Notes under the pieces: generated by a model
What the model saw: only the letters and a program-made list of their open reading frames with translations
The model's database searches: none
What the model was told of the DNA's origin: nothing
Shown here: positions 10,023 to 20,030 of the stretch, piece by piece
Position numbering within the stretch: position 1 is the stretch's first letter
Layout: the number at the start of each line of letters is the position of its first letter
Position numbers and translations under genes: made by a program
From: a virus
IMG/VR virus record: IMGVR_UViG_3300008117_000190
Location: 1-31,720 of that record
DNA length: 31,720 nucleotides
Direction: 5' to 3' (one strand)

Positions 10023-10892
10023 ATGGCATTGGCCGCACCCAGAAACTACCTAAACAACCGCGATTTACTGAAAGAAATACACCTAAGCAAAAACACCTAC
10101 TGCTATTACGCTGACAGAACACAGGATCATCAGTATGACATCATCTTGGCCAGTGTTGCCAAGATCAATCGCAATACCATAGCCGAAGCACGCAGAAATC
10201 GTGCAGCCAGACTGACCAAGGAAACTGGCGCAGAAGTCAACGAAAAAAAGATTCCGCACACGGATTTGGTGTTTCGCATCATGACCTGGGAGCATATTCC
10301 CATGGCGCCTAAAAAAGTGCCCAAGGCACAGGCCAAGAAGAAATCCGTGGAAGAACTGTTTGGCTGGGAAGAACTGCCTGAAGAAGATCCCTTGGCCGAA
10401 ATAGTGGACATCGTGCCCGAAGAAGAACCCGTGGCACAGACACATATCAGATTGAACTTTCCGCCGTTTGAACACTTCCGGCTCACGGAAGACAAAGATC
10501 CTTACATCGTGGGCCGCAGCCACTGGTCCGGAGATCTTGACACCGGAGTGTTTTGCAAAGAACACGGCAAGATGACCAACAAACTGGCACATATGTTTAT
10601 CAAACTGTGCGAGCGCTATGCCACCCGATCAAACTGGCGTGGTTATACCTACAACGAAGAAATGCGCGGCACCGCACTGCTGCAATTGAGCCAGATTGGA
10701 TTGAAGTTTGATGAATCAAAATCAGACAATCCTTTTGCTTACTATACCGCGGCCATAACCAATTCCTTTACTCGTGTGCTCAACGAAGAAAAGAAAAATC
10801 AAAACATCAGAGATGACATATTAGAAATCAATGGACTCAATCCCAGTTGGACAAGACAAATGTCCAATCAGACTGTGAAGTACGAAGAATAA
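10023..10892 (+). CDS. 55: Late-transcription sigma factor gp55 with extended N-terminus
   Basis: 289 aa, against 185 aa for T4 gp55. The C-terminal half (about residues 175-285) carries the gp55-type sigma region: GKMTNKLAHMFIKLCERYAT, RSNWRGYTYNEEMRGTALLQL, FDESKSDNPFAYYTAAITNS and FTRVLNEEKKNQNI, the sigma-2-like segment that recognises the late box. Residues 1-90 form an extra domain (NYLNNRDLLKEIHLSKNTYC and following), and residues 93-140 are a Lys/Pro then acidic linker containing SVEELFGWEEL. The protein would direct host RNA polymerase to the TAAATA-type boxes found across this window. The start ATG has AAGGA upstream. Promoter context suggests expression before the late genes it controls. 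Confidence 0.85.
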   Translation: MALAAPRNYLNNRDLLKEIHLSKNTYCYYADRTQDHQYDIILASVAKINRNTIAEARRNRAARLTKETGAEVNEKKIPHTDLVFRIMTWEHIPMAPKKVPKAQAKKKSVEELFGWEELPEEDPLAEIVDIVPEEEPVAQTHIRLNFPPFEHFRLTEDKDPYIVGRSHWSGDLDTGVFCKEHGKMTNKLAHMFIKLCERYATRSNWRGYTYNEEMRGTALLQLSQIGLKFDESKSDNPFAYYTAAITNSFTRVLNEEKKNQNIRDDILEINGLNPSWTRQMSNQTVKYEE

Positions 10893-10910: not shown

Positions 10911-11927
10911 ATGGATAAACTTTTCAAGAAGGCTGCTGTCTTTACGGACATCCACTTTGGACTCAAGTCCAACAGCCAACTGCACAATGAAGACTGTTTG
11001 AATTTCGTAATCTGGGCCACTGCCGAGGCAAAAAAACAAGGCTGTGAAGTGGCCATGTTCTTGGGAGACTGGCACAACAATCGTGCCAACATCAACATCG
11101 TAACACTAAATTATAGTTTACGAGCCTTAGAACATCTCAATGACAACTTTGATGCTGTTTATTTTATTCCTGGGAATCATGACCTGTACTATCGCGATCG
11201 TCGTGATATTCAAAGCGTGGCTTGGGCTAGACACTTACCGCGAGTTAATATTGTCAACGATTGGTTTAGTGGCGGTGATGTTGCTATCTGTCCTTGGCTC
11301 GTTGGCGAGGATCATAAAAAGCTTCGTTTCCTAGACAAGCAGTATGTGTTTGGGCATTTTGAACTGCCCACATTCTTGATGAATGCCATGGTAGAAATGC
11401 CCAGCCACGGTGAACTGTCCGCAGATGATCTGGCCAGTGCAGGCCACGTGTTTTCCGGACACTTTCATATGCGGCAGACCAAAAAGAATGTGACCTACAT
11501 AGGCAACTGTTTTCCGCACAACTACGCAGATGCCGGCGACGATGCTCGCGGACTCATGATCTTGGAGTGGGGGCAACAGCCTGTGTATCATGCCTGGCCC
11601 GACCAGCCCACTTATCGTGTGATGAATCTCAGCACTGCGATTGATTCTGCGGATCAGGTTTTCCGCTCAGGTATGCACGCTAGGCTGCAGTTGGACATAG
11701 ACATATCCTACGAAGAAGCCAACTTTATCAAAGAAACGTTCCACGAAAAATACAAACTTAGAGAAGTCAGTCTGATACCCAACAAGATGCAAGGCGTTGA
11801 AACAGATCTAGCACCAGGCAATGTGAAGTTTGAATCAGTGGATCAGATCGTCACACAGCAGATCACAGACATTGGCAGCGATCATTATGACAACAAGCTG
11901 CTGTTGGAAATATGGCATAGACTATGA
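10911..11927 (+). CDS. 47: Recombination nuclease subunit gp47 (Mre11/SbcD type)
   Basis: 338 aa, almost exactly the length of T4 gp47 (339 aa). All metallophosphoesterase motifs of the Mre11/SbcD family are visible: D13-I-H15, GDWH at 52-55, GNHD at 88-91, and the later GHFE and GHFHMR histidine motifs. With gp46 it forms the Mn-dependent complex that resects DNA ends for recombination-dependent replication. The gene lies 18 bases after gp55, and its stop overlaps the gp46 start in an ATGA junction, so the two subunits are translationally coupled. Confidence 0.93.
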   Translation: MDKLFKKAAVFTDIHFGLKSNSQLHNEDCLNFVIWATAEAKKQGCEVAMFLGDWHNNRANINIVTLNYSLRALEHLNDNFDAVYFIPGNHDLYYRDRRDIQSVAWARHLPRVNIVNDWFSGGDVAICPWLVGEDHKKLRFLDKQYVFGHFELPTFLMNAMVEMPSHGELSADDLASAGHVFSGHFHMRQTKKNVTYIGNCFPHNYADAGDDARGLMILEWGQQPVYHAWPDQPTYRVMNLSTAIDSADQVFRSGMHARLQLDIDISYEEANFIKETFHEKYKLREVSLIPNKMQGVETDLAPGNVKFESVDQIVTQQITDIGSDHYDNKLLLEIWHRL

Positions 11928-13687
11928 TACGCATCAACAAACTCACTGTAAAAAACTTCATGAGTGTGGGCAATACCACACAAGGTATCGACTTTGATCG
12001 CCAGGATCTAACCTTGGTCTTGGGCGAAAATCTAGACCTTGGTGGAGATGGTTCGCGCAACGGCACAGGCAAGACCACTATCATCAATGCTTTGAGTTAT
12101 GCGCTATATGGGCAGGCCCTGACCAACATACGTAAAGACAATCTCATAAACAAGACCAATGCCAAGAACATGATTGTGAGTTTGGATTTCAATGTGAACA
12201 ATCAGCGATATCGCATTGAGCGTGGACGCAAACCCAATGTACTTAAATTCAGCATTGACGACGAAGTACAGCAAACCGAAGATGACAACAGCCAAGGTGA
12301 CTCAAGAGAAACACAGTTGGCTATAGAACGCACCCTGGGCATGACCCACGATATGTTCAAACACATCTTGGCACTAAACACCTACACAGAACCTTTTCTA
12401 AGCCTCAAAGCCAATGACCAGCGTGCCATCATTGAACAGTTGTTAGGTATCACTTTGTTGAGCGAAAAAGCAGATCTGCTCAAGGAAGAAATGCGTGAAA
12501 CCAAAGACGCCATGAGCCAAGAAGAGCATCGTATCAAAGCCATGATCGAAGCCAATCGCCGCATGGAAGAGCAGATAGAAAGTTTGAAACGCAGGCAAAC
12601 TCTTTGGATCAACAAACGCGACGAAGATATCACTGCACTACAACGTCAAGTGGATGAACTTGGCCATCTAGACATAGAAGCAGAACTGCAGGCGCATCGT
12701 GACTTATTGGCCTACAATCAGCGTGCCAAAGATCTCAAAGATCTTGGTGCTGCCATTGCTCGTGGGCAAACCGACGCTGGTCGCGAGTCTCGGCTGATAG
12801 ACAAGATCACCAAAGAGATAGCCAGCCTACAGGATCATCGCTGCCACGCCTGCGGTCAGGATCTACACGATGCTGATCACGGCAAGATGCTGACCAGCAA
12901 ACAGCAAGATCTATCACAGTCACAAGCAAACTTACAAAAGATCAATCAAGATCTTGCAGAGTTATCCCTGGCAGTCACAGCAGTGGGTCCGCTGGGCACA
13001 CAGCCCAAGGTGTATTATGATCAAGAAGCAGATGCGCACGAGCATCGCAGTAGACTGGCCAGTGCCGAACTGAACTTGAAAAACAAACAGGCCGAGACAG
13101 ATCCTTATGCAGAACAGATTGAAGAAATGCAGCAACAGGCCTTGGTTGAAATCGACTATGATATGGTCAATCAACTGAAACGATTGCAGGATCATCAGGA
13201 CTTCTTGCTGAAACTGCTGACCAGCAAAGATTCGTTTGTGCGCAAAAAGATCATTGATCAGAATCTCTCATATCTCAACAGCAGGCTCACACACTATCTA
13301 GATCGCATAGGCCTGCCGCACACAGTGGTATTCCAAAACGATCTAACTGTACAGATCACAGAACTGGGCCGGGACCTGGACTTTGACAATCTTTCGCGCG
13401 GTGAGCGCAATCGCTTGATACTGAGTCTGTCCTGGGCGTTTCGTGATGTGTGGGAAAGTTTATACTCGCCGGTGAATGTGTTGTTCATTGACGAACTGAT
13501 AGATTCTGGTATGGATTCATCGGGTGTGGAAAATGCTCTGGCCCTGCTGAAGAAAATGACCAGAGAGCGCAACAAAAGTGTTTGGTTGGTGTCGCACAAA
13601 GACGAACTGGCCGGACGTGTGGAAAACATATTGAAAGTGGTCAAAGAAGGTGGCTTTACTTCCTATGCCACTGATGTGACCAATTAA
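11924..13687 (+). CDS. 46: Recombination nuclease subunit gp46 (Rad50/SbcC-type ATPase)
   Basis: 587 aa (T4 gp46 is 560). The ATPase halves are at the ends: Walker A NGTGKTT at 46-52, the ABC signature LSRGERNRL near residue 490, Walker B VLFIDELID near 518 and a VSHKDEL switch histidine near 550. Between them is a long coiled coil with a zinc-hook CHAC at about residue 306, which dimerises SMC/Rad50-type arms. It powers DNA-end processing with gp47 during phage recombination and replication. The start overlaps the gp47 stop by four bases. Everything expected of the family is intact. Confidence 0.94.
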   Translation: MIRINKLTVKNFMSVGNTTQGIDFDRQDLTLVLGENLDLGGDGSRNGTGKTTIINALSYALYGQALTNIRKDNLINKTNAKNMIVSLDFNVNNQRYRIERGRKPNVLKFSIDDEVQQTEDDNSQGDSRETQLAIERTLGMTHDMFKHILALNTYTEPFLSLKANDQRAIIEQLLGITLLSEKADLLKEEMRETKDAMSQEEHRIKAMIEANRRMEEQIESLKRRQTLWINKRDEDITALQRQVDELGHLDIEAELQAHRDLLAYNQRAKDLKDLGAAIARGQTDAGRESRLIDKITKEIASLQDHRCHACGQDLHDADHGKMLTSKQQDLSQSQANLQKINQDLAELSLAVTAVGPLGTQPKVYYDQEADAHEHRSRLASAELNLKNKQAETDPYAEQIEEMQQQALVEIDYDMVNQLKRLQDHQDFLLKLLTSKDSFVRKKIIDQNLSYLNSRLTHYLDRIGLPHTVVFQNDLTVQITELGRDLDFDNLSRGERNRLILSLSWAFRDVWESLYSPVNVLFIDELIDSGMDSSGVENALALLKKMTRERNKSVWLVSHKDELAGRVENILKVVKEGGFTSYATDVTN

Positions 13688-13725
13688 ATTTTGAACAGAC
13701 TCTAGACTCAGCTAACTATCTGCCT

Positions 13726-14235
13726 ATGCCATCAAAAAGTAAATCCAAAGGAAGCAGTTGGGAACGAGCAGTAGCCTTGCACCTAACTGAACTCTATGGA
13801 GAAACTTTTACCCGTGTGCCCAATTCAGGCGCATACATTGGTGGCAAGAACACACATCGCAAACAAACACTACACGAAGGTCAGATCCGCGCTTTCAAAG
13901 GCGACATCATACCCGGGCAGAGTTTTCCGCGATTCAATTGTGAATGCAAGTCGTATGCAGACTTTCCATTCCATCAACTGTTCCAAGGGCAGGTTGCTGT
14001 TTTAGAAACGTGGCTTGATCAACTGATGGACGTTGCCGATCCCGGTGACTACAACATATTGATCATGAAATTCAATCGCAAAGGCAAATACATCGCAACT
14101 CAGGCTCACAGAGACCATCTCCTATCTAGACAATTCAACTACGGCTCCATCAAACACGATCATTGGTATATCATGGATTACGATCAGTTCTGGGAAACAA
14201 ACGCTGATCTAGTCCGGCAGTATTGCGCTGCCTAA
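13726..14235 (+). CDS. Probable PD-(D/E)XK-fold endonuclease (Holliday junction resolvase-like)
   Basis: A 169-aa protein with a complete PD-(D/E)XK arrangement: E13 in the first helix (SSWERAVALHL), D60 in FKGDIIPG, E73-C-K75 in NCECKSY, and Q87/Q89 shortly after. The basic N-terminus (SKSKSKGSSWER) and this spacing are like archaeal-type and phage resolvases or structure-specific nucleases. It follows gp46/gp47 with a 38-base gap in the same direction, suggesting a role in resolving recombination intermediates or branched DNA before packaging. No T4 gp49 (endonuclease VII) homologue is seen in this window, but the rest of the genome is unknown. The fold call is by motif only; the exact substrate is inference. 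Confidence 0.7.
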   Translation: MPSKSKSKGSSWERAVALHLTELYGETFTRVPNSGAYIGGKNTHRKQTLHEGQIRAFKGDIIPGQSFPRFNCECKSYADFPFHQLFQGQVAVLETWLDQLMDVADPGDYNILIMKFNRKGKYIATQAHRDHLLSRQFNYGSIKHDHWYIMDYDQFWETNADLVRQYCAA

Positions 14236-14772
14236 CTACAGAACCCTACAATACGACCTGCGCTGGCTGCTGGAATGCCAGTCTCCAAGATGGACCCTCT
14301 GGGCCCTGGGTGTGGAGAGTCACCGCAATCGATGAGTTAGCACATATCCATGCTCCTAGAGCGAAAAATGTAGCACAAAAGATGCAGGCACTGTGAAAAA
14401 GAAACAACCTGCGCTGATCCGGGATTCGTCAGATGGGTCCAGGGTCAGTACCGTTGAAATGAACGCTGAAGTAGGGGGTACCGGTCAACCGCCTCCGTGT
14501 AGTGTACCAGACTACAATCTTCTTAATCTGACGGCTCTTCCAGGTGACGGGAAAACTCTGACCATGGCAAGCGATAGTTCACCCGCCCAGGGTGAACTAC
14601 GGCTCAAGGCTCTGGGAAATCAGTTTAAAGTAACAAAGGTTTTGACAGTAAACTTTAGGATGAACTAAGTTCAGATGAGCGCAAGCGAAATCTGAAGATC
14701 ACGCAGTGATCTATAAACAGTGTGAGACTCGTGCTTGAGAAATGACATACCCTGACTTGACTGTGACCAAAA
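14236..14772 (+). ncRNA. Candidate structured RNA in a 537-bp convergent intergenic region
   Basis: No convincing gene lies between the nuclease stop and the end of the oppositely directed gp51-like gene. Instead there are several perfect stems: 8 bp long-range (14427-14434 with 14526-14533); 6 bp with a 7-base loop (14498-14516); 10 bp with a 5-base loop (14575-14599); 6 bp (14626-14631 with 14652-14657); 7 bp (14670-14676 with 14690-14696) enclosing tandem G-A mismatches and a GCAA tetraloop; and 6 bp with a GCA triloop (14697-14711) that directly abuts the previous stem. TTCCAG at 14539-14544 can also pair with CTGGGA at 14612-14617. Directionality is inferred from the GNRA loop and the upstream plus-strand operon. 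I do not recognise the family. No poly-T terminator is visible at its 3' end. Confidence 0.5.
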
Positions 14773-14949
14773 TTAAAAGAATGGCAATCCAGACTTCTTG
14801 GTGGTTTCCATGTGCTGTTTGGTCATGTCATTGAACAATTTGCGATCGGTGGGACTGAGATAGAATGCATCTTCGTAAGATATACCACCACGGCTAAGCC
14901 ATGATATTTCCCACATTTCGCTCCTAATACCGTTGATGTCTCGATCCAT
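14773..14949 (-). CDS. Small gp51-like baseplate hub assembly protein
   Basis: A 58-aa protein from ATG 14949. A TTG codon at 14961 and a GTG at 14958 would add up to four residues, but the ATG gives the MDRDINGIRSEMW start I associate with this family. The core WEISWLSRGGISYEDAFYLS and the ending KSGLPFF are typical of the short protein that follows the gp26-like gene in environmental T4-like phages, annotated as gp51 or a hub-assembly chaperone. It probably helps fold or assemble the baseplate hub and may not be in the virion. It lies 38 bases after gp26 on the same strand. The name gp51 is by position and by look, so I leave the symbol empty. Confidence 0.6.
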   Translation of the reverse strand: MDRDINGIRSEMWEISWLSRGGISYEDAFYLSPTDRKLFNDMTKQHMETTKKSGLPFF

Positions 14950-14987
14950 TTTTGACACCAACTGTTCAATCGATTCTTGATCTAGTA

Positions 14988-15827
14988 CTAGGAGCTGCGC
15001 CCGAAAAAATTTGATAGATCCAACACCAGGGGTTGTTCGTAGTCCTTGCTACAGTGACTACAGGTCAACTTCAGCGGTTTGAGATTGCTGGCACTGCGTT
15101 TGGCAATGGCAGCATCTTTGATAGCATTGAAAATCTGACTGCTACAGTTGGTTAAAAATTCCAAGATCTGTGATTCATCATCTACTATGACATCATCGGT
15201 GCGTATGCTACCAATGCTGCGACTCAGTGCTTTGATGGTTCCTTCGGTTACTTTCAAAATGAGATCATTGATCTGTTGCAGTCGATCAGCATTGGTAAGA
15301 TCTGCTGTGGGCATGATTTCTGCTAGTTTTTGCTCGTTGAAGTGATCTTGATTGGTTTCGTTGATTTCTTTATAGGTCAAAGGTCTGAACATGATTTCAA
15401 AGTTGCCAATCACTGTGGATTTTTGATACTCGCTGCGGCCTATCATGGCCAGCTGATGGTTTAGATCTATCACATACTCTGATGTTTCTTGACAGTGCGT
15501 GCAGGATCCAGTGACATCTATGTCCTTGCCGTAGGTGGCAATCTTGATGGCTATCAACATAGCGTCAAGATCGATACTGGGCACTGCCCAGGCATTTTTC
15601 ACATTGGGTATGCAACTCTGTATGAGACTGATCACACTGGAGCCGTTGAACAGCGCATCAGGAGTCTTGTTCAGTATCTCATCCCGCACAGTCATGGGAT
15701 ACACTGGAAGTTCTCCGTTTTCAGGCATGTCAAGATCATTGGGTCCATAGTGTAGTCCGTTTGAAGGTAGTCGCAAAAATATCGTGGGCTGCCTAAAATA
15801 GCGAGTCAAAGGGTTAAAAGATGTCAT
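14988..15827 (-). CDS. 26: Baseplate hub protein gp26-like
   Basis: 279 aa from the ATG at 15827 (MTSFNPLTRYFRQP), the usual family start. An in-frame ATG nine codons earlier (15854) would overlap the late box at 15855-15862 and is rejected. Family marks are the FRQPTIFLRLPSNG start, GELPVYPMTVRDEI, NVKNAW-VPSIDLDAML, and two Cys pairs, CTHCQE near residue 110 and CSHCSKDY near 255, probably a zinc site. T4 gp26 (208 aa) is part of the central baseplate hub. Together with the following small gene it forms a two-gene leftward unit divergent from the tape measure. Confidence 0.8.
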   Translation of the reverse strand: MTSFNPLTRYFRQPTIFLRLPSNGLHYGPNDLDMPENGELPVYPMTVRDEILNKTPDALFNGSSVISLIQSCIPNVKNAWAVPSIDLDAMLIAIKIATYGKDIDVTGSCTHCQETSEYVIDLNHQLAMIGRSEYQKSTVIGNFEIMFRPLTYKEINETNQDHFNEQKLAEIMPTADLTNADRLQQINDLILKVTEGTIKALSRSIGSIRTDDVIVDDESQILEFLTNCSSQIFNAIKDAAIAKRSASNLKPLKLTCSHCSKDYEQPLVLDLSNFFGRSS

Positions 15828-15837
15828 TTTTCTGTCC

Positions 15838-15845
15838 AATAAATA
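15838..15845 (+). promoter_or_regulatory. Late promoter box AATAAATA for the tape measure gene
   Basis: The octamer differs from the T4 late box by one base and ends 28 bases before the tape-measure ATG. It lies face to face with an opposite box at 15855-15862. Confidence 0.55.
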
Positions 15846-15854
15846 AGGTAACAC

Positions 15855-18293: not shown

Positions 18294-20030
18294 ATGTCTT
18301 GGAAAAAACACTTTAAAGTAGCCAACCCCGGCGACGGCTCCATGAGCCCCATATCAGGCAGCACAGCGCAGAGCCGCAACTATGGCGCAGATTTTGGTTT
18401 CCGTAACTATGCGTCACGCTTGCCTGAAGTGTATTCGGGCCATCCCAACCGTATTGAACGCTATAATCAGTATGAAGCCATGGACACTGATGCACAGATC
18501 AATGCCTGTTTGGACATTATCTCTGAATTTTCCACGCAAAAAAACCTGCAAAACGGCACCAGTTTCAATGTCAAGTACAAGGAAAAAGCCACAGATCATG
18601 AAGTAAAAATCATCAAAGAACAGCTGCAGGCCTGGGTCAAACTCAACAAGTTTGATCAGCGTATGTTCAAGATGTTCCGCAATGTGATCAAGTACGGCGA
18701 TCAGGTGTTTATCCGTGATCCACAGACTTTTGAACTGTACTATGTGGACATGACCAAGGTCAGCCGTGTAATCGTTAACGAATCAGAAGGCAAGCGCCCT
18801 GAGCAGTACATTGTGCGTGACATCAACCCCAACTTCCAGAATCTAACTATCTCAGCCATTGCCACAGACGCTGCCTATGCCAATCAGCCGCAGCAGGGCT
18901 CCTGGGGCGGTCAGCCGGGCTATACAGTGCCTTCAAATCCGTTCAATCAAGGATCACGTTTCAGTCTCAGCCAAAACGAGTCGGCTATCGCTGCTGAACA
19001 CGTGGTGCATTTGAGTCTGTCAGAAGGTTTGGATTTCTACTGGCCATTTGGACAAAGCATACTGGAAAGCATTTTCAAGGTCTACAAGCAGAAAGAACTG
19101 CTAGAAGATTCCATCCTGATATATCGTGTACAGCGTGCGCCAGAGCGGCGTGTGTTTTACATCGACGTGGGCAACATGCCTTCGCACTTGGCCATGCAGT
19201 TTGTTGAGCGTGTGAAAAACGAAATACATCAGCGACGTATTCCTACCTTGACCGGTGGAAGCATGAACATCTTGGATGCCACCTACAATCCACTCAGCAT
19301 CAACGAAGATTACTTTTTTCCACAGACAGCAGAAGGTCGCGGATCTCGGGTAGAAATGCTGCAAGGTGGCCAGGCCGTGGGCGAGATCGACGATCTCAAG
19401 TATTTCAACAACATGATGATGCGTGGACTGCGTGTGCCTTCATCTTACTTGCCCACTGGTCCCGATGACTCTACCACACCACTCAGCGATGGGCGTGTGG
19501 GCACAGCACTCATACAAGAATTCCGTTTCAACGAATACTGCAAACGTCTACAGCAGTTGATACTGCACAAGTTGGATGATGAGTTCAAGATGTTCATGCG
19601 CTGGCGTGGATTCAACATTGATTCCAGTTTGTTTGATCTGGAATTCAATCCACCGCAGAACTTTGCTGCTTACCGTGAAGCAGAGTTGGATACCAGCAGG
19701 GTCAGCACTTTTACCACTTTGGAACCACTGCCTTATATGAGCAAGCGTTTCTTGCTGAAACGTTATCTGGGTCTGACCGAAGAAGAAGTGTTGGAAAACG
19801 AAGAAATGTGGCGCGAAGAGCGCGACGAGCCTGCAGCACAAGGCAGCCAAGGTTCAGAACTGCGTTCAGTGGGCATCAGTCCTGGAGGATTTGAAGCAGA
19901 TCTTGCAGGACTGCCACCCGAAGGCGCGGGTGCTGGAGACCTGGGTGCAGATGATCTTGGAGCACCCGGAGCAGCAGCACCGCCTGCAGCCAGCACTATC
20001 ACTGCGCCTGGTGCACCACCAGCAGTTTGA
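18294..20030 (+). CDS. 20: Portal vertex protein gp20
   Basis: 578 aa (T4 gp20 is 524). The family core is well kept: RIERYNQYEAMDTDAQINACL, IISEFSTQ, VIKYGDQVFI, SIFKVYKQKELLEDSILIYR, VFYIDVGNMP, INEDYFFPQTAEGRGSRVE and RVPSSYL. The portal is the dodecameric ring through which DNA is packaged and to which the tail attaches; it also nucleates prohead assembly. The last 60 residues are an Ala/Gly/Pro-rich tail that looks disordered. The gene heads the head-assembly series 20-core-21-22-23, as in T4. The start is preceded by AAGGAT and a late-type box. Confidence 0.95.
   Translation: MSWKKHFKVANPGDGSMSPISGSTAQSRNYGADFGFRNYASRLPEVYSGHPNRIERYNQYEAMDTDAQINACLDIISEFSTQKNLQNGTSFNVKYKEKATDHEVKIIKEQLQAWVKLNKFDQRMFKMFRNVIKYGDQVFIRDPQTFELYYVDMTKVSRVIVNESEGKRPEQYIVRDINPNFQNLTISAIATDAAYANQPQQGSWGGQPGYTVPSNPFNQGSRFSLSQNESAIAAEHVVHLSLSEGLDFYWPFGQSILESIFKVYKQKELLEDSILIYRVQRAPERRVFYIDVGNMPSHLAMQFVERVKNEIHQRRIPTLTGGSMNILDATYNPLSINEDYFFPQTAEGRGSRVEMLQGGQAVGEIDDLKYFNNMMMRGLRVPSSYLPTGPDDSTTPLSDGRVGTALIQEFRFNEYCKRLQQLILHKLDDEFKMFMRWRGFNIDSSLFDLEFNPPQNFAAYREAELDTSRVSTFTTLEPLPYMSKRFLLKRYLGLTEEEVLENEEMWREERDEPAAQGSQGSELRSVGISPGGFEADLAGLPPEGAGAGDLGADDLGAPGAAAPPAASTITAPGAPPAV

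What the first reader, a model, noticed from the sequence alone, without database searches (positions are those of the whole stretch)
14236..14772. Possible undescribed structured RNA in a 537-bp gene-free convergent region
The rest of the window is packed with genes at gaps of a few bases, yet this region has none that convince. Seen directly: perfect stems of 8, 6, 10, 6, 7 and 6 bp at 14427-14434/14526-14533, 14498-14503/14511-14516, 14575-14584/14590-14599, 14626-14631/14652-14657, 14670-14676/14690-14696 and 14697-14702/14706-14711. The fifth stem has tandem G-A pairs under a GCAA tetraloop, and the sixth stacks directly on it. Weaker pairings (GCAGG 14384-14388 with CCTGC 14408-14412; TTCCAG with CTGGGA) would enclose larger domains, and ACCTGCGCTG occurs twice (14256, 14407). 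The density and nesting look like a large folded RNA rather than one terminator. Phages are known to carry large ornate RNAs such as GOLLD and ROOL; I cannot match this to either. It would be transcribed after gp46/47 and the nuclease.
Basis: partly seen in the sequence, partly recalled or inferred. Interest (0 to 1): 0.75.

Follow-up and report, generated by a model that had tools for sequence, protein, structure and literature searches.

The report
Structured phage RNA with twin elements
The gene-free stretch encodes a real, intricately folded RNA that many large phages and some bacteria share, and it carries two short stretches that evolution usually keeps identical to each other, which is a new clue to how such unexplained RNAs work.

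Summary
Perfect stems are no commoner than in shuffles; the fold z-score is -2.4. Homologues show it. The core (14378-14650, + strand) recurs in over 100 viral contigs, usually between gp46/RusA and convergent gp51/gp26 genes. 43 of 46 pairs tested, two pseudoknots included, change on both sides in some relatives and stay paired. Rfam has no gathering match in the window, but its Polynucleobacter-1 (RF01718) is the 5' domain of one branch, in phages and bacterial chromosomes. The core was not described in what I searched. New feature: two elements, A-CTC-N7 and A-TCT-N7, flank a hairpin. N7 is identical in 91 of 101 RNAs yet takes 22 forms; 70 of about 97 changes are identical in both copies on one branch, against 0-1 in shifted controls. 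The window's own clade breaks that rule. Likeliest role: a trans-acting RNA showing two identical sites to one unknown partner. I saw no transcript data.

The parts
14236..14715 (+). Whole RNA as proposed (ends inferred: 5' start directly after the RusA stop codon, 3' end after the tandem hairpins)
   Evidence: Homologue alignments; + strand from G-U 509 versus A-C 147 in paired columns
14236..14377 (+). 5' domain, exchangeable between clades; shares ACAGAACCCTACA with some sister-clade RNAs (L046, L052, L068); RF01718 takes this place in other branches
   Evidence: read by eye in 63 and 73
14384..14412 (+). H1: GCAGG 14384-14388 / CCTGC 14408-14412, conserved loop CTGTGAAAAAGA-ACAA
   Evidence: helix 1: 5 of 5 pairs change on both sides, 88.3% paired
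14414..14448 (+). H2: 14414-14420/14442-14448 and 14422-14426/14436-14440
   Evidence: helix 2: 12 of 12 pairs change on both sides, 82.2% paired; 10 of 38 window/L005 differences fall in its two facing arms
14427..14533 (+). H3 long-range pseudoknot: loop of H2 14427-14434 with 14526-14533
   Evidence: helix 3: 7 of 8 pairs change on both sides, 71.4% paired; pairs not in the search model;
14453..14489 (+). H4 pseudoknot: GTTGA 14453-14457 with TCAAC 14485-14489 in the loop of H5
   Evidence: helix 4: 5 of 6 pairs change on both sides, 94.5% paired (the sixth, 14458-14484, is A-G in the window); pairs not in the search model; 14457-14485
14474..14496 (+). H5: GGGGG 14474-14478 / CCTCC 14492-14496, loop with TACMG and AACCG
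   Evidence: helix 6: 4 of 5 pairs change on both sides, 90.7% paired
14468..14522 (+). H6: 14468-14471/14519-14522, encloses H5 and H7
   Evidence: helix 5: 4 of 4 pairs change on both sides, 89.3% paired
14498..14516 (+). H7: 14498-14503/14511-14516, variable hairpin
   Evidence: helix 7: 6 of 6 pairs change on both sides, 75.2% paired
14555..14565 (+). Element A (A-CTC-N7; here ACTC-TGACCAT)
   Evidence: same-base covariation with element B in the family; the window copy departs from the rule
14575..14599 (+). H8 hairpin between A and B
   Evidence: covarying pairs 14580-14594 and 14584-14590
14610..14620 (+). Element B (A-TCT-N7; here CTCT-GGGAAAT)
14670..14711 (+). 3' module: hairpin 14670-14676/14690-14696 with GAGCGCAAGCGA, then terminator-like hairpin 14697-14702/14706-14711; in a number of other phages it lies 1-3 kb further downstream
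13726..14235 (+). Neighbour: PDDEXK_15 / RusA-like nuclease, upstream, same strand
14773..14961 (-). Neighbour: small convergent ORF ('gp51s' is my label), with homologues beside gp26 in many relatives
   Evidence: no Pfam or PHROG match

Best explanation
SHOWN: 14236-14715 (+) encodes a structured non-coding RNA of T4-like large phages: a pseudoknotted core (H1-H7), then element A, hairpin H8, element B and a 3' tandem-hairpin module. It belongs to a broader RNA group in which one branch, in phages and in Polynucleobacter-type bacteria, has Rfam's Polynucleobacter-1 as its 5' domain. INFERRED: it is made by read-through from the late-sigma/gp47/gp46/RusA operon or from its own promoter, and acts in trans as a free RNA. 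The core is a scaffold that presents two single strands, A (CUC-N7) and B (UCU-N7), whose N7 must be the same sequence. The likeliest reason is that both bind one partner: a repeated or dimeric site on a sequence-specific protein, or one complementary nucleic acid outside the phage genome. I put the RNA itself at 0.97, trans action at 0.7, and twin-site recognition of one partner at 0.45.
For: Covariation: 83.7% of cells paired against 61.3% after shuffling, 43 of 46 pairs with two-sided change, score 0.507 against 0.170 (0 of 500), slid controls at most 0.113. My own substitution-permuting null: 19 column pairs above the maximum of 20 null alignments, four of them same-base A/B pairs. Model R1 finds 98 of 100 sources given (30 of them supplied the model), one full strong copy in each of 9 IMG/VR records (three of these also have one weak extra hit, E 0.06-0.42) and in 12 of 12 more. 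Twin N7: 91 of 101 identical, 22 forms, 70 identical same-branch changes against 0-1 in shifted controls. Bacterial copies: 19 of 21 examined keep identical N7. N7's complement is absent from the RNA itself (0 of 118 with the full seven-mer; mean 2.6 with N7s swapped between RNAs), so no cis partner. Position: 133 of 161 loci have gp51s/gp26 next downstream in convergent orientation (some loci share a contig).
Against: No transcript was seen by me; expression is inferred. The window and L005, the very clade in question, break the N7 rule (3 of 7 and 2 of 7 positions agree). No complementary target stood out in 8 phage records, and no conserved stem holds A or B. A purine swap A/G would be tolerated by pairing to U, yet A and B still change together, which fits a protein partner or a direct A-B contact better than simple antisense. 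No sigma-70-type promoter or T-tailed terminator was found within the RNA. The single-sequence stem count is at chance level.
Confidence: 0.72

Rival explanations
1. A and B contact each other, in one molecule or between molecules of an oligomer, through a parallel helix of same-base pairs, so identity rather than complementarity is selected; the RNA is then a self-assembling scaffold in the manner of GOLLD, ROOL or OLE.
For: Same-base covariation, with no complement of N7 in the RNA; N7 is purine-rich with an invariant A at position 6; the large ornate RNAs form homo-oligomers, with an unusual A-A helix reported (PMC12286853, abstract and passages); as in GOLLD, one end is conserved and the other exchangeable.
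Against: Long mixed-sequence parallel same-base helices are not known to me in natural RNA; N7 often contains U and sometimes C; the flanking CTC and TCT do not match each other.
Confidence: 0.2
2. A and B are twin cleavage or processing sites of a sequence-specific RNase, so a piece of about 55 nt with H8 is released; the sites co-evolve with the enzyme.
For: Identical sites on both sides of a hairpin, spacing 48-63 nt in 100 of 103 RNAs.
Against: No co-varying RNase was looked for or identified; CTC and TCT differ next to the supposed site.
Confidence: 0.15
3. Decoy or mimic: phages carry the RNA without DUF6641 to bind the partner of the bacterial DUF6641-linked RNA found on islands beside defence genes.
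For: DUF6641 lies divergently upstream in 21 of 21 bacterial copies examined; Zorya gene matches beside one copy, a methylase and a candidate defence gene near another; DUF6641 not found in 20 phage records, in 281 phage pieces plus the window or by tblastn in the named phages.
Against: DUF6641 is common without this RNA (97 of 186 genomes, against 19 with RF01718 over the cut-off), so it may be a general island gene. A PHROG family (phrog_31551) contains DUF6641-like viral proteins, so some viruses or prophages have it. Only two islands were annotated in depth.
Confidence: 0.15
4. Ordinary 3' UTR or terminator of the gp46/RusA transcript that protects mRNA ends.
For: 3' position in a convergent gap; tandem 3' hairpins.
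Against: The terminator-like module is separable, 1-3 kb away in a number of phages, while the core stays; two pseudoknots and twin N7 are far beyond a terminator.
Confidence: 0.05
5. The 91-aa ORF 14393-14668 is the real gene.
For: Found in six loci of near relatives, four over the full length and two cut by contig ends, 86-100% identical.
Against: Not open in the family at large; no Pfam or PHROG match; window/L005 differences cluster in facing H2 arms.
Confidence: 0.01

Closest known systems
Polynucleobacter-1 RNA (Rfam RF01718; Weinberg et al. 2010, PMC2864571: table row and passages seen)
   Same: Sits directly 5' of the same core and the same A-H8-B block in one phage branch and in bacterial chromosomes
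   Different: The Rfam model is 141 nt and covers the 5' domain only; the window has another 5' domain and no match to the model; core, pseudoknots and twin N7 are not in the model
GOLLD RNA
   Same: Large pseudoknotted phage RNA, one end conserved and the other variable (PMC12286853 passages)
   Different: No Rfam match; no tRNA gene in the window; shorter
ROOL RNA
   Same: Large phage RNA with multiple pseudoknots (PMC12286853 passages)
   Different: No Rfam match; no tRNA gene in the window; shorter
IS110 bridge RNA (recalled)
   Same: Two loops in one RNA that read related sequences
   Different: No recombinase among the ten neighbouring proteins tested; here the two elements are identical and the RNA sits at a fixed locus

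Membership tests
Polynucleobacter-1 (RF01718) | Score at or above 37 bits with the Rfam model | tested here: not met
   Window: no match at gathering; not among the hits at E up to 10 for 14100-14900. Met in 11 of 20 relatives with the core
Polynucleobacter-1 (RF01718), extended by the core | Downstream core with H1-H7, A-H8-B | tested here: met
   Window 131.7 bits with R1, by construction since it was in the model; bacterial RF01718 loci 14.2-22.9 bits in 3 of 3 tested and core 3' half in 21 of 21 examined
This RNA family (twin rule) | N7 of A identical to N7 of B | tested here: not met
   Met in 91 of 101 RNAs, not in the window or L005
GOLLD / ROOL / HEARO | Match to the Rfam model | tested here: not met
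Group I / II intron | Match to the Rfam model and an interrupted gene | tested here: not met
   No match; lies between complete ORFs
tRNA or tmRNA | ARAGORN call | tested here: not met
   0 in the window
Intrinsic terminator only | G+C-rich hairpin followed by a run of T | tested here: not met
   3 terminator-like sites in 13600-15000, none within 14236-14715
Homo-oligomeric ornate RNA | Self-assembly | not testable with these tools
   Needs gels, mass photometry or cryo-EM

The most novel reading that the evidence does not exclude
An RNA in which selection enforces that two separate strands have the SAME sequence, whatever it is: a twin-key RNA, used by large phages and, with DUF6641 beside it, by bacterial islands, either as a two-site recogniser in phage-host conflict or as a scaffold held by same-base strand contacts. 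Neither kind of identity code is known to me in natural RNA.
Probability: 0.4. Interest if true: 0.92.

Novelty: new variant of a known kind. Interest (0 to 1): 0.8.

Why it matters
GOLLD and ROOL, the best-known large phage RNAs, are still described as of unknown function (PMC12286853 passages). This RNA adds a widespread family at a fixed place among core T4-like genes, joins an orphan Rfam entry (RF01718) to a full-length RNA with an exchangeable 5' domain, places it in both phages and bacterial chromosomes, and offers a direct experimental handle: change N7 in one copy, the other, or both.

Tried and rejected
Rejected: the 91-aa ORF as a gene. Translational bypass between matched codons (N7 often reads NNN-TRA, as at T4 gene 60, recalled): at most 16 of 103 RNAs have 30 open codons before A in any one frame and the A-B spacing has no fixed frame. 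A third cis strand pairing with N7: none, even depleted. A and B as loops of conserved hairpins: no better than shuffled partners. A complementary target in 8 phage records: matches no longer than controls. Phosso and SCTP-2: no homologue in the right place; Phosso has only an off-slot hit at E 0.19. blastn of four type I or II RNAs and of the window region against named phages: no match; plasmids none. The sister-clade 'type II' RNA was not linked to type I by model R1, only by motif and position.

Full report
WHAT THE WINDOW IS. The 31.7-kb window is a whole IMG/VR viral record classed by length only with T4-like genes: late sigma factor (10023-10892), gp47/SbcD (10911-11927), gp46/SbcC (11924-13687), a PDDEXK_15/RusA-like nuclease (13726-14235), a gp26-like baseplate protein (14988-15854, minus) and a portal protein (18294-20030). 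The closest named phages by gp46 are PA5oct-type Pseudomonas phages at 50% identity. Its host and habitat were not determined.

THE OBSERVATION. The stems exist but do not stand out in one sequence: 11 perfect stems of at least 6 bp against 8.7 +- 2.8 in shuffles, and 29 of 39 other pieces of the window have as many; fold z = -2.40. Rfam gives nothing at gathering in the window and only chance-level hits at 14100-14900.

HOMOLOGUES. The 91-aa ORF recurs in six loci of near relatives. The nuclease as query gave 231 matches, of which the best 80 were kept; blastn then showed that parts of 14377-14506 match distant relatives in gaps without a common ORF. Iterated nhmmer and an exact 19-base pattern from the pseudoknot brought 194 loci with some hit, 161 of them with the core as I counted it. 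Of 120 pattern loci, 111 carry the core by nhmmer, and R1 adds 2 of the other 9. Of 80 nuclease loci, 40 carry the core by nhmmer; 6 of the other 40 are cut off by the end of the held sequence inside the RNA.

STRUCTURE. From 30 sequences I built model R1 for 14378-14538 with H1, H2, H5, H6 and H7. It finds 98 of 100 sources, all but PA5oct and Phosso. On the resulting 96 distinct rows, 46 pairs including pseudoknots H3 and H4, which the model did not contain, are 83.7% paired against 61.3% after shuffling; 43 of 46 pairs have changes on both sides; the covariation score is 0.507 against 0.170 +- 0.006, and slid structures score at most 0.113. The other pairs were fitted by the model, so their counts lean towards it. 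A second test with my own substitution-permuting null on 103 sequences gave 19 column pairs above the maximum of 20 null alignments: 14 Watson-Crick type, one unclear (14472-14519, half paired) and four same-base; this is an imitation of R-scape, not R-scape. G-U outnumbers A-C 509 to 147 in paired columns, so the + strand is the RNA. Between the window and L005, otherwise nearly identical here, 10 of 38 differences lie in two facing blocks of H2 and mostly restore pairing (pairing read by eye). Identity between the two falls from about 96% to about 70% near 14650, which suggests that RNA and nuclease were exchanged as a block.

NOT A PROTEIN. The longest stop-free run has a median of 42 codons in 103 homologues, and the A-B distance has no fixed frame.

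TWIN ELEMENTS. 5' of H8 lies A-CTC-N7 and 3' of it A-TCT-N7. At the three flanking positions the commonest combination holds in 101 of 102, 103 of 103 and 99 of 103 RNAs. N7 is the same in both copies in 91 of 101 RNAs and takes 22 forms. On a tree from 233 columns outside A and B there are 98 changes in A and 96 in B; 71 fall on the same branch and 70 are the identical change. Shifting the comparison by 1-3 bases leaves 0-1. Two of 103 RNAs with gaps in A or B were left out. The ten exceptions include the window (TGACCAT/GGGAAAT; the row used is L002, identical to it) and L005 (TAATCAT/AGGAAAT). No full complement of N7 lies in the RNA and no unusual target in 8 phage records.

LINK TO A KNOWN FAMILY. 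Rfam RF01718, Polynucleobacter-1, matches at 71-120 bits directly 5' of the core in 11 of 20 core-bearing loci scanned and is over the cut-off in 7 of 18 records. In the source paper it is a table entry, 'Burkholderiales, fresh water/estuary' (PMC2864571, passages); it was the only paper in the library with that name. In 399 genomes of the order of G016 (a genome whose locus is titled Rhodoferax) 3 are over the cut-off; in the 186 genomes of the genus of one of these, 19 are. Of 26 over-cut-off bacterial matches I examined 21. All 21 have the 3' half of the phage core downstream (nhmmer E 3e-14 to 5e-3), 19 have exactly matching N7 (six forms), and 21 have a DUF6641 gene divergently upstream. 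R1 itself scores 22.9, 19.3 and 14.2 bits on the three tested (E 1e-4, 1e-3, 0.03), and by eye two of them pair H3 and H4 with new letters (L340: CCACTTA/TAAGTGG and GTTTC/GAAAC). So RF01718 is a piece of a larger RNA. In the phage family the 5' domain is exchangeable: at least three kinds precede the same core (by eye).

A SECOND RNA IN THE SAME SLOT. Sister-clade phages without the core carry, between the same genes, another conserved, largely ORF-free element of about 450 nt (17 aligned) with 76 predicted pairs, 38 with two-sided changes, in 13 sequences (no shuffle control was run). It has a similar pseudoknot motif (CGTTGC / GCAACCG) and a similar repeat-hairpin-repeat block by eye; R1 does not find it, so kinship is only suggested. 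PA5oct has a weak R1 match (20.2 bits, E 0.004 for the whole genome) in this gap and on the right strand, overlapping a 40-aa ORF annotated as hypothetical; nhmmer does not see it.

CONTEXT. In 161 loci with the core, the next downstream marker is gp51s or gp26 on the opposite strand in 133, the next upstream one RusA or gp46 on the same strand in 117; 9 have no marker and 2 another order (several loci come from one contig, and many run out of sequence). Two bacterial copies sit on what look like islands: an integrase-like gene, a methylase and a candidate defence gene near L340's copy, matches to ZorA-D beside L341's. DUF6641 is widespread without the RNA (97 of 186 genomes). Of 30 DUF6641 loci taken from that search 8 have the bacterial core and 2 more a matching repeat; shuffled DNA gives the repeat in 4 of 600. 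In 19 of the other 20 an ORF of at least 70 codons starts within 400 nt upstream, though 5 of the 10 RNA-bearing loci show one too. So in these bacteria the RNA implies DUF6641, not the reverse.

FUNCTION. Covariation, a fixed place, and independence from the reading frame and from the terminator module argue for a trans-acting RNA. Enforced identity of two strands needs one partner read twice, or contact of the strands with each other. I prefer the first. Gene conversion between the copies is unlikely, since the base directly before N7 differs between the copies in 100 of 101 RNAs and the one before that in 101 of 101.

LITERATURE. The listings of searches in the open library showed no description of this core or of the twin rule; subscription papers are not held. 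I saw PMC12286853 (abstract and passages), PMC2864571 (passages), PMC7522526 (passages; nothing on small RNAs) and PMC13142463 (abstract and outline only). A PA5oct transcriptome paper, recalled, did not appear in searches.

Noticed in passing
L046, L052, L061, L064, L068, L071-L075, L078-L080, L083, L084, L086, L087 (for example L064:5508-6061): A second conserved structured element of about 450 nt ('type II') occupies the same gap in a sister clade of phages.
   Followed up: partly
L336-L338, L408-L425, L340, L341: Bacterial genomes carry the RNA (RF01718 plus core) with a divergent DUF6641 gene in 21 of 21 loci examined; no paper in the library names DUF6641.
   Followed up: partly
L341:8578-17947: Matches to Zorya defence genes ZorA-D (ZorA over 171-662 of 663 model positions) begin about 1.5 kb from one bacterial copy of the RNA.
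   Followed up: partly
window 14640-14660 against L005: Identity drops from about 96% to about 70%: a possible recombination boundary near the 3' end of the RNA.
   Followed up: partly
L147 record (G005), position 165725-165864: A weak RF01718-like match (35.5 bits, under the cut-off) about 110 kb from that phage's core RNA: possibly a second RNA.
   Followed up: no
window 14670-14711 and many loci: A tandem-hairpin module (GAGCG..AGCGA hairpin plus terminator-like hairpin) recurs near the gp51/gp26 side and is separable from the RNA.
   Followed up: partly
window 14773-14961: A 62-codon convergent ORF with a TTG start has homologues in many relatives but matches no family.
   Followed up: partly
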